Below, one piece after another: positions 18,274 through 34,314 of a stretch of 64,000 bases of DNA. Position 1 is the stretch's first letter; each line of letters opens with the position of its first letter. The DNA is taken from positions 1,612,001-1,676,000 of the forward strand of contig NZ_CP099993.1 in the NCBI RefSeq assembly GCF_024138125.1, in the 5' to 3' direction. The notes under the pieces are model-generated. The model was not told the DNA's origin. It saw only the letters and a program-made list of their open reading frames with translations, and did no database searches. The translations under genes and the position numbers were made by a program. The DNA comes from Halorussus salilacus (GTDB lineage Archaea > Halobacteriota > Halobacteria > Halobacteriales > Haladaptataceae).

Positions 18274-20016
18274 TCACTCCAGCGCGTCGAGGCGGAACTC
18301 GAAGGCCGCCACCGGCAGTTCGAGGTCGTGTTCCACGAGCACTTCGGGATGGACCTCTCCGACGACGCCGACCGCCTCGCCGTCCAGCACGACAGCGGCC
18401 GCACGGCCGTCGATGAACGACGGGTGGTCGGTCGCGGGCGTCTCCAACTCCACGTCGAAGTTGCGCGCGATGGCTTGCAGGCGGGCCTTCGCGTCCTCGT
18501 AGGAGGCGTCGTGGCGCGCGAGCACCCCGGCGACCGACCGGTGTTCGGCGACGCCGGTGTTCTCGCGCTCGTCCACGCGGGCGGCGAGACCGATTTCGGC
18601 GAGGTCCTGGGGGTACGCCCGGTGGGTGTTGTTCTCCAGCACCATCATGAGCGAGGGGAGCGCCCACGTCCGGAGCATGGTGTAGTCCTCGCTGTAGGGT
18701 TCGAGGATGGTGGCGGGCTCGTCGGCTCCGACCGCGTCGGGGGTCGCGCCGTCCTCGTCCGGCCGCGCGATTCCCATCCGGTCGAAGTTCTCCTCCTCGC
18801 TGATCATGTGGAAGTTGAGCAGGTCCTCGAAGCCCAGACCCACCAGCACCTCGCGCGCGGCGTCTTCGAGCTTCGAGCGGTCGTGGCGACCGCCGACCGT
18901 CCCCACGTCGGGGTAGCGCGGTTCGAGATCGTTGAAGCCGTAGGCCCGGCCCACGTCGTCGACCACGTCGAGGGGGTGGAGCACGTCCACGCGGTAGGGC
19001 GGCACCTCAACCTCGTAGGCTATCTCGTCGTCGCCGACCTCCTCGGTCTCGGCGTCGAGGCCCGACCGCTCCAGCAGGTCGACCACGCGCTCGGCGCTCA
19101 GGTCGACCCCGAGCATGCTCTCGATTCGCTCGTGGGTCACTGTCTTCTGTTTCACCTCGAAGTCGGGGCGGACCAACGTTCGGTCCAGATACTCGACCTC
19201 GACCTCCTCGACCGTCGCGCCGCGGGCGTCGAGCGCGTAGCAGATGATGTTGCACATGTGGTCGATGGTCCACTGGTCGGTGCCCGTGAGTTCGACGAAC
19301 AGGTCCCGCGAGTCGGTCGAGACCTCGGTCCGGCGGCCGTTGATGACCGGCGGGAACGAGAACAGTCCGATGTCGTCGTAGATGGCGGGGTAGCGGTCGT
19401 ACTCGGCGACGAGGTCGGCGTAGGTCTCGCCCGTGGGATGGGCGCGCAGGACCTCGTCGGGCGTCATCTCGGCGTCCGAATCGAGGGGAACGAACCGGTC
19501 GCCCTCGGGGTCGATTCCCCGGTAGGTGATGGAGTTACCGGGTTCGGCGCGCTCCTCGGTGACGGCTTCCCCCTTCAGCATCGTCAAATCGTGGATGCCG
19601 ATGGCTCCCTTCGCGCGCTTGCGCCCCATCGTGGCGTGGAGCTTCTCCTGCAGTTGGATGAGCGAGTCGAGGGCCTCCTCGTCCAGATTCACGCCCCGAA
19701 TCACCGCACCCGTGACGTAGGGGCGCTCGTCGGGCACCGACTCGTCGACCTCGATGGTCCAGTCGGCGTCGTTGGTGGCGGGGACGTACACGCCCCTGTC
19801 GTCGCCGTAGTGGTAGCGAAGCGACCGCGCCACCCCCTCGACCGAGAGGCGGTCGAGGCGGTCGGGCGCGAACTCCAACTGGAGGTCGCCCTCCTCGGTC
19901 CGGCCCTCGAACTCCAGTCCGAGACCGAACATGTCGTCTATCAGTTCGTCGTCCGATTTCTCGTCGTGGCCGGTCAGTTCCCGGAGTTCGTCGGGGTTCA
20001 CGTCTACGACTGGCAT
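18274..20016 (-). CDS. pheT: Phenylalanyl-tRNA synthetase beta subunit, 580 aa
   Basis: Archaeal-type beta chain (B3/B4, B5 and catalytic-like core domains, without the bacterial N-terminal EMAP module). Characteristic stretches: VTGAVIRGVNLDEEALDSLI, MGRKRAKGAIGIHDL, LFSFPPVINGRRTEVS, EVEVPPYRVDVLHPLDVVDDV and ALPSLMMVLENN. It forms the alpha2beta2 enzyme with PheS and carries the editing site for Tyr-tRNA-Phe. Its ATG overlaps the pheS stop codon by one base (TGATG), indicating translational coupling. Confidence 0.97.
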   Translation of the reverse strand: MPVVDVNPDELRELTGHDEKSDDELIDDMFGLGLEFEGRTEEGDLQLEFAPDRLDRLSVEGVARSLRYHYGDDRGVYVPATNDADWTIEVDESVPDERPYVTGAVIRGVNLDEEALDSLIQLQEKLHATMGRKRAKGAIGIHDLTMLKGEAVTEERAEPGNSITYRGIDPEGDRFVPLDSDAEMTPDEVLRAHPTGETYADLVAEYDRYPAIYDDIGLFSFPPVINGRRTEVSTDSRDLFVELTGTDQWTIDHMCNIICYALDARGATVEEVEVEYLDRTLVRPDFEVKQKTVTHERIESMLGVDLSAERVVDLLERSGLDAETEEVGDDEIAYEVEVPPYRVDVLHPLDVVDDVGRAYGFNDLEPRYPDVGTVGGRHDRSKLEDAAREVLVGLGFEDLLNFHMISEEENFDRMGIARPDEDGATPDAVGADEPATILEPYSEDYTMLRTWALPSLMMVLENNTHRAYPQDLAEIGLAARVDERENTGVAEHRSVAGVLARHDASYEDAKARLQAIARNFDVELETPATDHPSFIDGRAAAVVLDGEAVGVVGEVHPEVLVEHDLELPVAAFEFRLDALE

Positions 20017-26613: not shown

Positions 26614-28187
26614 CTAACTGAACCGCCGGACGGTCATGTCGAGCGTGTCGAGGTCGAGGATGGGCGCGAACCCGGCGTCGGGGTCGATGTTGACCGACTT
26701 CTGGAAGTCGGTCTGGGCCTGCCAGCACCCCGAGTTGACCGCGAGGACGTTGTGGTACTTGCCCCACCCGAGCTTGTGGACGTGACCGGTGTGGAACACG
26801 TCCGGGACCGACTCCATCACGAGATAATCGCGCTCCTCGGGAGCGAGCCGGGTCTTGCCGCCGAACTGGGGCGCGACGTGGCGCTTCTTCAGGAGCTGGT
26901 ACATCGCCTTGTGGGGTTGCTCGTAGCTGGCCTTCTCGTCGGGGAGTTCGGCGATGACCTCGTCGAGCGAGACGCCGTGGTACATCAGGATGTCGACCCC
27001 CTCGACGGTCACCGTCGAGGGGTTGCCCGTGATCTCGGCGTCGTGGGCCGACATGATGTCCCGAAGTTCCTCGTCGAAGCCGGGTTGGGGTTCGGCGAGT
27101 CGCACCGCGTCGTGGTTGCCCGGAATCATCACGATATCGAGGTCGCCGGGCACCTCCTTGAGGTACTCCGAGAACCGCTCGTACTGGTCGTAGAGGTCGA
27201 CGATGTCGAGTTCCTCGTCCTGATTCGGGTAGACGCCGACGCCCTCGACCATGTCGCCCGCGATGAGCAGGTACTCGACCGCCTCGGCCTCAGGGGTGTG
27301 GAGCCAGTCGGCGAACCGCGACCACGCGTCGGCCATGAACTCCTGACTGCCGACGTGAACGTCGCTGACGAGCGCGGCCTGTACGTGGCGGTCGGCGGTC
27401 GAGGGCTGGTAGGTCCGGGGCACGTCCGGGAAGTACAGCGAATCGACGAACAGGATGCCGTCGCCGTCGCCGTTGTCGTCCGAGAGCGTGCCCTCGACCG
27501 CGATGACCTCGTCGAACAGGAGTTCGTCGACCGCGTCGGCGAACTCCCGGTCTTTCATCACGAGACACGGGAAGGTCCCGCTGGTGTCCTCCAACTCGAT
27601 GAGCCAGTGGCCGCTCGCGGTCGAGCGGATGTCGCTTATCATCCCGACGATTGCGGTCTCGCCCCCGCCGGGCATCTTCTGGACCGCGGAGGCGGGTCGG
27701 GCGTTGACCCGCCCGCGCAACTGCTTCGAGAGGCGCTGGAACCGGTCGCGGAACACGTCGACGAAGTCGTCGTACTCGCCGGTCCCCGTGCTCTCGCCGG
27801 TCACGTCGCCAGCAATCGCGAGCGACCGCGCCTCGAAGTCGGGGTCCCGAACCGACTCGTCGGGGCGCGTCACGTCCCGCGGGGCGTCGGTTTCCACCCC
27901 CTTCGTTTCTCCTGCACTCCCATCTTCAGTCTCCGATTTCCCCCCATTTTTTGCTCCAGTAGAAACGGAGCTATCGGAGCCGTTCCCGTCCCGCCCCGCC
28001 GCGTCGAGGACGCCCCGGACGTGGTCGGCCGAGAGCTTCAGCGCGTCCTCGGGCGCGCGCTCGACCGCGGCGTCGAGCGCGCCCGCGGGGTCGTCGGCCC
28101 CGCGAGCAGGGTCACCGCCTCCGGGTCGGCGTTGAAGCCGCGGCTGGTGAGTTCGCGGGCGATGCGGACCCGGGTCTCCATCGGCAC
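26614..28187 (-). CDS. polB: DNA polymerase D small subunit DP1, frame interrupted near the N-terminus
   Basis: The body carries an OB fold and the calcineurin-like nuclease motifs SDVHVGSQ, AGDMVEG, PGNHDAVR, MYHGVS and HTGHVHKLG, all intact, so 3'-5' proofreading exonuclease activity is expected. The N-terminal residues METRVRIARELTSRGFNADP...LLA lie in a different frame (ATG 28181, or GTG 28187 giving MPMET). The join is at a run of four G residues (28098-28101, minus strand); a fifth G, or a -1 slip, would fuse LLA to GADDPAGALDAAVE and give about 522 aa, normal for the family. Could be an assembly error, a true mutation or recoding. Partner DP2 is not in this window. Divergent from the signal peptidase gene. 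Confidence 0.88.
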
Positions 28188-28397: not shown

Positions 28398-29222
28398 ATG
28401 AGTTCTCCCCGAGACGACCCCTCGTCGGGCGACGCGGACGAGGACGACGGCGAGCGGGCCGACGACGGCCCCCGCGAACCGTCGGACCGGCGGTCCGACG
28501 GTTCGCCTCAGCGTTCCACCGATACGTCGCCCCGTTCGGAGGGTTCACCGCCTCGCTCCGACGGGGGCGAGCGGGCCGACGAACCCACCGGCCCGCTCGC
28601 GCCGATTCGTCGGTTCCGCCGGAGCGACAACGGGGCGGTCGTGTTCGTCCGCGAGATGTTGAGTAGCGCGGCCATCGTCCTCGCCATCGGTCTCCTGCTG
28701 TTCGCCATCAGCGGCGTCTGGCCGCCGATGGTCGCCATCGAGAGCGGGAGCATGGAGCCCCACATGCAGAAGGGCGACCTCGTGTTCATCATGGACGACG
28801 GCCGTCTCGTCCCCGACGCCGCGCAGGGCGACACCGGCGTCGTGACCCACGAGGCCGGAGCCGAGGCGGGCTACGAGCAGTTCGACGAGCCCGGTGACGT
28901 GATAATCTACCAGCCGGACGGGCGGAGCTACGAGACGCCCATCATCCATCGCGCGATGTTCTGGGTCGACGAGGGGGAGAACTGGTACGACAGGGCCGAC
29001 GAGGACCACGTCCCGCAGGGGACCGACAGTTGCGAGGAGCTGTCGAACTGCCCGGCACCCAACTCGGGATTCATCACGAAGGGCGACGCCAACCCCTACT
29101 ATGACCAGTCGCGCGCGATGGGAATCAGCGCCCCCGTCGAACCGGAGTGGGTTCGCGGCACCGCCGAGGTCCGGGTGCCGTACCTCGGGTGGATTCGACT
29201 CTACTTCTCGGGCGCGGCGTAG
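28398..29222 (+). CDS. Signal peptidase I (S26B, archaeal/ER type), 274 aa
   Basis: Cleaves Sec signal peptides at the outer face of the membrane. A ~75-residue disordered acidic tail rich in Ser/Asp/Arg precedes the TM anchor (FVREMLSSAAIVLAIGLLLF, ~83-102). The catalytic Ser is Ser118 in ESGSMEPHM, the His is His184 in PIIHRAMFW and an Asp is Asp230 in ITKGDANP. A Ser-His-Asp set, rather than Ser-Lys, marks the archaeal/eukaryotic class. A GTG at 28389 could add three residues. Located beside the origin as in other haloarchaea. Confidence 0.95.
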   Translation: MSSPRDDPSSGDADEDDGERADDGPREPSDRRSDGSPQRSTDTSPRSEGSPPRSDGGERADEPTGPLAPIRRFRRSDNGAVVFVREMLSSAAIVLAIGLLLFAISGVWPPMVAIESGSMEPHMQKGDLVFIMDDGRLVPDAAQGDTGVVTHEAGAEAGYEQFDEPGDVIIYQPDGRSYETPIIHRAMFWVDEGENWYDRADEDHVPQGTDSCEELSNCPAPNSGFITKGDANPYYDQSRAMGISAPVEPEWVRGTAEVRVPYLGWIRLYFSGAA

Positions 29223-32370: not shown

Positions 32371-33012
32371 ATGGGACTGTTCACGGATCTCAAAGACAGC
32401 ATATCCCGCGTCACTGATAACTTGTTCTCCGCGCAGGAGCCGAAGCGAATCGGTATCTACGGCCCGCCGAACGCCGGAAAGACGACTCTCGCCAACCGAA
32501 TCGCCCGCGACTGGACCGGCGACGCGGTCGGCCCCGAGAGTCACATTCCACACGAAACGCGCCGGGCCCGGCGCAAGGAGAACGTCGAAATCGAACGCAA
32601 CGGCAAGACGGTAACCATCGACATCGTGGACACGCCCGGCGTGACGACGAAGGTCGATTACGAGGAGTTCCTCGACCACGATATGGAGAAAGACGACGCC
32701 GTCCGGCGCTCGCGCGAGGCGACCGAGGGCGTCGCGGAGGCGATGCACTGGCTCCGCGAAGACGTGGACGGGGTCATCTACGTGCTCGACAGTAGCACCG
32801 ACCCGTTCACGCAGGTAAACACCATGCTCATCGGCATCATCGAGAGTCAGGACCTCCCGGTCCTGATTCTCGCCAACAAGACCGACCTCGAGGATTCGAG
32901 CGTCCAGCGCATCCGCAACGCCTACCCCCAGCACGAGACGATTCCGCTCTCGGCGCTGGAGGGCGACAACATGGACGAAGTGTACGAGAAGATAGCGGAG
33001 TACTTCGGGTGA
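32371..33012 (+). CDS. Era-like GTPase of the origin-associated cluster, 213 aa
   Basis: P-loop GTPase: G1 GPPNAGKTT (residues 31-39), G3 DTPG (87-90) and G4 NKTD in LILANKTDLED. After G3 a segment VDYEEFLDHDMEKDDAVRRS marks the archaeal subfamily always found next to DUF2073 and a zinc-ribbon gene near orc1; these are called origin-associated proteins (Oap) in haloarchaea, but I am not certain of the letter. Role unknown; a link to replication or ribosome biology is suggested only by context. ATG start; 4 nt before the next gene, so a three-gene operon. Confidence 0.92.
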   Translation: MGLFTDLKDSISRVTDNLFSAQEPKRIGIYGPPNAGKTTLANRIARDWTGDAVGPESHIPHETRRARRKENVEIERNGKTVTIDIVDTPGVTTKVDYEEFLDHDMEKDDAVRRSREATEGVAEAMHWLREDVDGVIYVLDSSTDPFTQVNTMLIGIIESQDLPVLILANKTDLEDSSVQRIRNAYPQHETIPLSALEGDNMDEVYEKIAEYFG

Positions 33013-33016
33013 TCTC

Positions 33017-33421
33017 ATGCCGGAAGTGAAAGGGGACGGACCCAACGACGGGGGCGGCGGTGGCGGCGTCCAGATAGACCTCATCGGGGCCGACCGGATG
33101 GCCGAGATGGCCTCGATGGAGAAGATCCGGATGATACTCGACGGCGTCCGCGACGGCAACATCGTCATCCTCGAAAAGGGACTGTCGCCCGACGAGGAGA
33201 GCAAGCTCATCGAGGTCACGATGACCGAGATCAGTCCCGACGAGTTCAACGGCATCGAGATCGAGACCTACCCGCGCTCGGAGACCGCAGACCAGAGCTT
33301 CCTCGACCGGCTGATGGGCAAGGAGTCGACCGCGAAGCTCACCGTCATCGGCCCTGCGAACCAGATAGAGACCCTCCACAAGGACGAGAACCTCATCAGC
33401 GCGCTCGTCTCTCGGAAATAA
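33017..33421 (+). CDS. DUF2073 protein, origin-associated cluster, 134 aa
   Basis: A Gly-rich start (GGGGGGVQIDLIGADRMAEM) leads to the conserved DUF2073 core: MEKIRMILDGVRDGNIVILEKGLSPDEESKLIEVTM and EFNGIEIETYP. No TM segment or known catalytic motif. Partner of the upstream GTPase in nearly all archaea having both. Its stop codon overlaps the next ATG (TAATG). Confidence 0.9.
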   Translation: MPEVKGDGPNDGGGGGGVQIDLIGADRMAEMASMEKIRMILDGVRDGNIVILEKGLSPDEESKLIEVTMTEISPDEFNGIEIETYPRSETADQSFLDRLMGKESTAKLTVIGPANQIETLHKDENLISALVSRK

Positions 33422-34314
33422 TGCCCCACCAGTGCACCGACTGCGGCCGGACGTTCGCCGACGGCTCGAAGGAGATGCTCTCGGGCTGTCCCGACTGCGG
33501 CGGGAACAAGTTCCAGTTCCTGCCCGCGAGCGCGGCCGCGACCGACTCCGGGGCCGGTCCCGAAACCGGGGCCGGACCCGAAACCGGGGGGTCGGCGGGA
33601 GGCACCGCCCCGAAGAAGGCACCCGAAGAGCCGACTCCCTCGCCGAGTTCGGGGCCGCGCTCGGAGTCGAGCGCCGGTCGCGGCCCGCGGTCGCGGCCCG
33701 CGACCGGCGACGCGTCTGCTGGACCCGAAACCGAGGGCGGCGACGCCAGCGCGGTCGACCGCGCGGCCGCGACCGTCCGGGACTGGGTGCGCTCTGGCAC
33801 GAGCGACGACGACTCCGGCGAACCGCCGACCGATAGCAGCGAGTCGCGCGCCGACCACTCCGAATCACGTCCGTCAACCGACGGCTCGACTCGAAACGAC
33901 GCGCCCGGGAGCCGACCCGTCGCGCCGGAGGACACCGCGCAGGCCAACGCCCGGAGCGACGTGGTCAGCGAGGCCGAACTCCCGGACAGATCGCACGAGG
34001 CCGAACTCCCGGACAGATCGCAGGTGGACTCGCCCGCATCCGGGACTCGGGCCGACTCCACGGGACAGACGACCCCCGCCGACCCACCGGCCGACGGCGA
34101 GGTCGTCGACACCCCGAGCGGGGAGTCACCGGGGCTGAAAGAGCTCCGCGAGGAACTCAACAGCCAGTTCGAGAGCATCCGCATCGTCGAACCCGGCCAG
34201 TACGAACTCAATCTGATGGAGCTGTACGAGCGCGAGGAGTACATCATCGCGCTCAAGGAGGACGGCAAGTACGTCATCGAGGTTCCGGACGGGTGGGAGA
34301 CGCCCGACCGGTAG
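33421..34314 (+). CDS. Zinc-ribbon protein with long disordered linker (origin-associated), 297 aa
   Basis: An N-terminal zinc ribbon CTDCGRTF...GCPDCGGNKF (residues 5-32) is followed by ~190 residues of low-complexity acidic/Ser/Pro sequence, then a conserved C-terminal domain (SIRIVEPGQYELNLMELYEREEYIIALKEDGKYVIEVP). Only the two ends look conserved. The linker contains in-frame duplications, GAGPETG and a 27-bp repeat coding AELPDRSHE/AELPDRSQV (33977-34027), evidence of slippage. Last gene of the GTPase-DUF2073 operon. Function unknown. Confidence 0.88.
   Translation: MPHQCTDCGRTFADGSKEMLSGCPDCGGNKFQFLPASAAATDSGAGPETGAGPETGGSAGGTAPKKAPEEPTPSPSSGPRSESSAGRGPRSRPATGDASAGPETEGGDASAVDRAAATVRDWVRSGTSDDDSGEPPTDSSESRADHSESRPSTDGSTRNDAPGSRPVAPEDTAQANARSDVVSEAELPDRSHEAELPDRSQVDSPASGTRADSTGQTTPADPPADGEVVDTPSGESPGLKELREELNSQFESIRIVEPGQYELNLMELYEREEYIIALKEDGKYVIEVPDGWETPDR

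What the first reader, a model, noticed from the sequence alone, without database searches (positions are those of the whole stretch)
26614..28187. Single-base frameshift at a G-run near the N-terminus of polymerase D subunit DP1
The N-terminal 27 residues and the remaining ~495 residues of an essential replication gene are in different frames, joined at four consecutive Gs (28098-28101). Adding one G restores a continuous, family-like sequence. Every nuclease motif is intact. An essential gene should not be broken, so this is either a homopolymer sequencing error or a recoding (-1 slip) site; an internal start would drop a normally conserved N-terminus.
Basis: partly seen in the sequence, partly recalled or inferred. 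Interest (0 to 1): 0.55.

Follow-up and report, generated by a model that had tools for sequence, protein, structure and literature searches.

The report
Missing base in polymerase gene assembly
A gene for a DNA-copying enzyme of a salt-loving archaeon looks broken near its start because one letter is missing, most likely through a sequencing or assembly error, since the relatives that could be compared have the gene unbroken there and this genome sequence has the same kind of break in other, unrelated genes.

Summary
polD1 (DP1, PolD small subunit) is on the minus strand, start GTG 28187, stop 26616-26614. The frame changes by one missing base at GGGG 28101-28098. The first frame stops 19 codons later; the other 495 codons are in another frame.

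The break is private to this genome. All 97 other loci that could be tested have both parts in one frame (about 91 distinct). In the family search 26 of 27 other genomes match over the N-terminus in one open frame, and the 27th gave no match. No second copy was found in this genome.

In 864 kb of this genome, six more genes (FAU-1/DUF402, two adjacent TrkA_C-type genes, CobS, CobQ, a small membrane protein) are split with the same sign. Five are continuous across the equivalent point in every relative locus compared, the sixth in 6 of 8. Nothing marks the polD1 site as a recoding site.

Best reading: an uncorrected single-base deletion in the assembly. A recent real mutation rescued by an internal GTG is the main rival; programmed frameshifting is very unlikely. 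No reads were available, and flagged breaks are about as frequent in sampled relatives, so the call is inferential.

The parts
28098..28187 (-). polD1 5' part, frame A: GTG start (28187), ATG (28181), N-terminal residues up to ...VTLLAG (last codon GGG 28100-28098)
28098..28101 (-). GGGG at which one base is missing relative to all testable relatives; shared by frames A and B
28038..28040 (-). TGA that ends frame A when read without a shift
26614..28101 (-). polD1 main part, frame B (495 codons from GGG 28101-28099 plus stop): rest of the N-terminal domain, linker, OB-like region, phosphoesterase/nuclease domain
26773..27375 (-). Metallophos (PF00149) match, nearly full length (profile 4-190 of 191)
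   Evidence: converted from residues 392-592 of the 644-aa open frame that begins at 28548
27895..27897 (-). first in-frame GTG after the break (427 aa product), candidate internal start under the real-mutation rival; a CTG lies at 28041

Best explanation
polD1 is an ordinary, intact haloarchaeal DP1 gene in the organism. The assembled sequence lacks one base in a G/C-rich stretch (at or beside GGGG 28101-28098), a consensus error that splits the reading frame on paper only. Shown: the break, its absence in all testable relatives, and same-sign breaks in other genes of this genome. Inferred: that the base is present in the cell, since reads could not be inspected.
For: Private to this genome: 97 of 97 testable other loci carry the N-terminus and the nuclease part in one open frame (L018 is cut by a contig end; about 91 distinct), and so do 26 of 27 other genomes in the family search (the 27th, G015, 62% complete, gave no match). 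One polD1 locus was found in G000. Protein similarity to relatives continues on both sides of the junction, each in its own frame. polD1 deletions were not recovered in Halobacterium NRC-1 (0 of 40 colonies; PMC1906834, passages), so a true knock-out is unlikely. In 864 kb of this genome (window plus 40 stretches) 12 junctions were flagged (8, 4), and 7 including polD1 proved to be split genes when compared with relatives. Relatives continuous across the equivalent point: FAU-1/DUF402 17 of 17, TrkA_C-type genes A and B 14 of 14 each, CobS 11 of 11, CobQ 8 of 8, small membrane protein 6 of 8. All 7 have the same sign, one base missing (or two extra), in 6 of them at or near runs of 3-5 G or C.
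Against: No reads or second assembly of this strain were available. Flag counts are not clearly higher than in relatives (12 in 864 kb here; 3 in 393 kb of five relatives, 6 in 400 kb of G002; those nine were not tested against homologues), so this assembly is not shown to be unusually poor. G/C 5-mers are not depleted. CobS, CobQ, the TrkA_C-type genes and the membrane protein could be real mutations in dispensable genes, and the membrane-protein break could be a real 17-base tandem duplication. The exact place of the missing base depends on the alignment in several genes, most of all in TrkA_C gene B, whose linker aligns poorly. The missing polD1 base need not lie in a homopolymer.
Confidence: 0.88

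Rival explanations
1. A genuine, very recent single-base deletion fixed in the sequenced culture. Viability is kept by starting translation inside the gene, most simply at GTG 27897 (427 aa) or GTG 27873 (419 aa), which gives a DP1 without its N-terminal domain but with the OB and nuclease domains.
For: In-frame GTG codons exist at 27897 and 27873, in a stretch that varies among relatives. In P. horikoshii residues 1-72 form a separate folded domain and 73-200 are unfolded (PMC4187176, passages). A P. abyssi construct of residues 144-622 crystallised (PMC4996933, passages).
Against: The N-terminus is present in all testable relatives. DP1(1-200) binds DP2 and PCNA in P. horikoshii (PMC4187176, passages). 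Both pieces still resemble relatives, so the event would have to be recent. Several same-sign breaks in one genome suggest a common technical cause.
Confidence: 0.09
2. Programmed or frequent -1 ribosomal slippage at GCG GGG CC: peptidyl-tRNA-Gly slips from GGG 28100-28098 to the overlapping GGG 28101-28099 and goes on with GCC 28098-28096.
For: The P-site codon can re-pair perfectly one base back. A stable hairpin begins about 12 bases downstream (centroid structure). -1 frameshifting is known in archaea, and in the Sulfolobus fucosidase case the other Sulfolobales genes are full length, the shift being seen in two strains of one species (PMC8211752, passages), so lack of conservation alone does not exclude it.
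Against: No X-XXY-YYZ heptamer: only one tRNA can re-pair. The spacer of 12 lies outside the 5-9 nucleotides given in PMC8211752 (passages). 519 in-frame NNG GGG sites occur in 191 long reading frames of a 464-kb sample of this genome, 22 of them with a downstream fold at least as stable. The fold is not unusual for its composition (z -0.91, 34 of 200 shuffles as good). A relative without any shift folds more stably (L003, -41.1 against -39.5 kcal/mol). Codon 28 is variable across haloarchaea. Unrelated genes of this genome break in the same way.
Confidence: 0.02
3. polD1 is a decayed pseudogene and another polymerase subunit replaces it.
For: Only the frame break.
Against: One polD1 locus and no second copy found. 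The remaining 495 codons form one open frame, and the matched stretches are 85-91% identical to the other Halorussus genomes. The gene is essential in Halobacterium NRC-1 (PMC1906834, passages).
Confidence: 0.01

Closest known systems
DP1 / PolD small subunit, haloarchaeal type (NCBIfam NF003116, DNA-directed DNA polymerase II small subunit)
   Same: Score 907 bits against a cut-off of 425 for the long frame; nearly full phosphoesterase domain; N-terminal segment recognisable.
   Different: The first 29 profile positions are in another frame because one base is missing in the assembly.
Programmed -1 frameshifting as in Sulfolobus solfataricus fucA (PMC8211752, passages)
   Same: A -1 shift would be needed to join the parts; relatives hold an uninterrupted gene.
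   Different: No slippery heptamer, no conserved signal, and other unrelated genes of the genome carry the same type of break.
Single-base deletion errors at short G/C runs in genome assemblies (artefact class, from general knowledge)
   Same: One base missing, G/C-rich context, several genes affected, all with the same sign.
   Different: Read-level proof is missing here, and the sequencing platform of this genome is unknown to me.

Membership tests
DP1 (NF003116) | Whole-protein score above the curated cut-off | tested here: met
   907.4 bits, cut-off 425
DP1 (NF003116) | Calcineurin-like phosphoesterase domain complete | tested here: met
   PF00149 profile 4-190 of 191, PF04042 2-202 of 210; individual catalytic residues were not assigned by a tool
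DP1 (NF003116) | N-terminal domain continuous with the rest in one frame | tested here: not met
   Frame break at 28101-28098 as assembled; attributed to a missing base
Programmed -1 ribosomal frameshifting | Slippery heptamer that allows P- and A-site re-pairing | tested here: not met
   Only GGG to GGG can re-pair; the preceding codon GCG would face CGC
Programmed -1 ribosomal frameshifting | Downstream stimulatory structure at 5-9 nt | tested here: inconclusive
   Hairpin present at about 12 nt, z -0.91, as stable in a relative without a shift
Programmed -1 ribosomal frameshifting | Shift or signal conserved in related genes | tested here: not met
   0 of 97 testable loci shifted; codon 28 variable
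Programmed -1 ribosomal frameshifting | Full-length product shown experimentally | not testable with these tools
   Needs proteomics or a reporter
Assembly/consensus indel error | Absent from close relatives | tested here: met
Assembly/consensus indel error | Other unrelated genes of the same assembly broken in the same way | tested here: met
   6 further breaks of the same sign in 864 kb; one of them may be a real tandem duplication
Assembly/consensus indel error | More breaks than in comparable assemblies | tested here: inconclusive
   12 flags in 864 kb here, 3 in 393 kb and 6 in 400 kb of relatives, the latter nine unchecked
Assembly/consensus indel error | Reads contradict the consensus | not testable with these tools
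   No reads held

The most novel reading that the evidence does not exclude
An essential replication gene of a haloarchaeon is translated through a single-tRNA -1 slip at GGGG, helped by a GC-rich hairpin, so that the level or N-terminal composition of DP1 depends on slippage. It would be the first recoding of a replicative polymerase subunit in archaea that I know of (recall; one search found no paper with its four terms, and one search listed four papers, seen as titles and abstract starts, with passages of one, PMC8211752).
Probability: 0.02. Interest if true: 0.65.

Novelty: not a real feature. Interest (0 to 1): 0.07.

Why it matters
Mainly as a caution. A gene-finder would call this genome's polD1 truncated or a pseudogene, and likewise CobS, CobQ and FAU-1, although the organism may well have them whole. 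Searches for recoding or gene loss in this genus should screen for such same-sign single-base deletions first.

Tried and rejected
Recoding at GGGG: rejected for lack of a heptamer, the ordinary fold, the commonness of the same contact in other genes, and no conservation.

A second, intact polD1 copy elsewhere in the genome: none found.

A natural start after the break: the 16 Halorussus homologues have GTG at the position of 28187 and share the N-terminus.

I then required the stop of the upstream frame to lie more than 10 bases inside the next segment, which left 8; the 11 dropped had the upstream stop close to the beginning of the next segment, as at ordinary gene ends. Of the 12 flagged in all, 5 were not counted as breaks: L110 13367 (repetitive C-terminal tail, judged by eye), L119 12735 and L196 2144 (ordinary stop/start pairs), L102 19267 (a short remnant of a molybdopterin-oxidoreductase-like gene, other sign, judged by eye), L198 13064 (Gly-rich, other sign, not examined further). 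Window 32371-34314 switches frames twice but holds three normal neighbouring genes.

A direct comparison of the window with reading frames from five relatives showed only the polD1 break, but those frames covered 43,166 of the 64,000 bases.

Homopolymer spectra did not separate this genome from relatives: G/C 5-mers per 100 kb are 164 here, 165 in G009 and 78-116 in the other four.

In one search the three stretches taken from relatives were misplaced; one search replaced them. One search was too loose and was replaced. One search gave no usable row for L006; its other three rows stand, with counts too small for a test of selection. One search (NCBIfam on FAU-1 and TrkA_C pieces) gave no families. 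Paper searches on Halorussus and on homopolymer errors in haloarchaea were seen as listings and did not identify the strain or its platform. The four papers cited were seen as passages only.

Full report
The finding. The gene on the minus strand at 28187-26614 is polD1, the small (DP1, proofreading) subunit of archaeal polymerase D. NCBIfam NF003116 scores 907 bits against a cut-off of 425, Pfam finds a nearly complete metallophosphoesterase domain, and the six distinct solved chains matched by sequence are all named DNA polymerase II small subunit. Frame A runs from GTG 28187 through GCG 28103-28101 and GGG 28100-28098, then 19 more codons to TGA 28040-28038. Frame B is open from GGG 28101-28099, GCC 28098-28096 to TAG 26616-26614. 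GTG is the likely start: 16 of 16 Halorussus homologues have GTG there, while the ATG of this genome is ATG in only 3 of them. A codon-usage model without homology also switches frame at this place.

Relatives. The genus is Halorussus: four contigs of the genus search have the same lengths as records titled Halorussus; the window's own record is not named. Of 99 loci, L001 is this genome and L018 is cut by a contig end; the other 97 all have the N-terminal motif and the nuclease part in one open frame. Six of the 97 repeat a genome already counted (L020-L023 repeat L002, L003, L007 and L005; L014/L019; L054/L055), which leaves about 91. The motif match was loose (up to 8 or 11 substitutions); a re-scan with the 18-residue motif found best matches of 0-8 substitutions in the same open frame in all 97, the weakest four having 7 or 8. 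One search kept only the best 80 of 191 related stretches. In the family search (28 genomes), 26 of the 27 other genomes match over residues 1-59 or 1-60 of the query in one open frame of at least 504 codons. G015, 62% complete, has no match. G000 is the only one with two pieces in two frames. No second polD1 was found in G000.

What is missing. Against four relatives (L002, L003, L017, L006) the alignment needs one gap in this genome, between GGG and GCC. The lost base is the wobble base of that Gly codon; in 16 Halorussus genes the codon there is GGG 8, GGC 4, CGG 2, GGA 1, GGT 1. A shortened G-run is likely but not certain. Both pieces remain similar to relatives: codons 1-27 differ from L002, L003 and L017 at 9, 8 and 11 codons, of which 4, 5 and 5 are synonymous; these counts are too small to test selection.

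Does the rest of this genome show the same? I took 40 stretches of 20 kb from contig 1 and, with the 64-kb window, ran the frame model over 864 kb. It was trained on the window and the first 20 stretches. 12 same-strand junctions were flagged under the final criterion (8, 4; a looser first pass printed 19 in 464 kb). With relatives as reference, seven are split genes. polD1 is one. The FAU-1/DUF402 protein (L108 about 17990; the name FAU-1 is recalled) has one part matching profile 2-35 and the other 40-68 of PF04167, and 17 of 17 relatives are continuous across that point, although G015 and G016 have the gene divided elsewhere. Two neighbouring genes at L114 about 13819 and 15280, one with a TrkA_C match and the other similar to it, are continuous in 14 of 14 relatives each (three further genomes gave no match). 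CobS (L192 about 15613) has profile positions 1-112 in one frame and 115-206 in the other and is continuous in 11 of 11 relatives that have it. CobQ (L192 about 10020) is continuous in 8 of 8 relatives with a close homologue (weak hits in other genomes were not compared). A small membrane protein (L118 about 12564) shows the joined form in 6 of 8 relatives, one by both motifs and five by reading the printed frame; the other two gave no motif match. The L118 break sits in a tandem repeat and may be a real 17-base duplication. All seven have the same sign, as if one base had been lost or two gained. Near the break lie GGGG (polD1, CobQ), CCCC (FAU-1), CCCCC (CobS, L114 13819) and GGG (L114 15280). 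The exact position is alignment-dependent, above all in L114 13819.

Controls and limits. The same scan flagged 3 junctions in 393 kb of five relatives and 6 in 400 kb of G002. I did not test those nine against homologues. So frame breaks seem to be a general background of these assemblies, and I cannot say that this one is worse than its neighbours. The frequency of G/C 5-mers is not reduced. The argument rests on privacy, sign and the essential nature of polD1 (0 of 40 deletions recovered in Halobacterium NRC-1; PMC1906834, passages), not on an elevated rate.

Could it be recoding? A -1 slip would restore the protein, and peptidyl-tRNA-Gly could re-pair GGG with GGG one base back. But there is no heptamer, and 519 in-frame NNG GGG sites occur in 191 long frames of the 464-kb sample, 22 of them followed by a fold at least as stable. 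The hairpin starts about 12 bases downstream, has z -0.91, and is surpassed in stability by L003, which has no shift. A caution: in the one archaeal case for which I saw details, Sulfolobus fucA, relatives are also full length (PMC8211752, passages), so absence in relatives alone is not proof. The other split genes make a polD1-specific device unnecessary.

Could it be a real mutation? In P. horikoshii the first 72 residues fold on their own and residues 73-200 are unfolded, while DP1(1-200) binds DP2 and PCNA (PMC4187176, passages). A P. abyssi protein of residues 144-622 crystallised (PMC4996933, passages). A protein starting at GTG 27897 or 27873 could therefore fold. This is the main rival, at about 9%.

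Verdict. A correct observation with an ordinary cause: most probably a missing base in the assembly (88%). Reads over 28050-28150 would settle it.

Noticed in passing
L108 about 17990 (G000:C1 about 1217990): FAU-1/DUF402 gene split by one missing base near CCCC; 17 of 17 relatives are continuous across that point.
   Followed up: yes
L114 about 13819 and 15280 (G000:C1 2150001-2170000): Two adjacent related genes, one with a TrkA_C match, both split with the same sign; continuous in 14 of 14 relatives each.
   Followed up: yes
L192 about 10020 and 15613 (G000:C1 1110001-1130000): CobQ and CobS, cobalamin genes about 5.6 kb apart, both split with the same sign; continuous in 8 of 8 and 11 of 11 relatives compared.
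   Followed up: yes
L118 about 12564 (G000:C1 2750001-2770000): Small membrane protein gene split within a 17-base tandem repeat; a real duplication or a base lost from an 18-base repeat.
   Followed up: partly
L102 about 19132-19405: Short remnant that looks by eye like the start of a molybdopterin oxidoreductase, out of frame and cut off.
   Followed up: no
L156 (G016) and L157 (G015): FAU-1 is divided at other positions in these two relatives, so private frame breaks occur in other assemblies too.
   Followed up: no
L215 18588, L219 5017 (G002); L133 692 (G017): Junctions flagged by the frame model in relatives that look by eye like further split genes.
   Followed up: no
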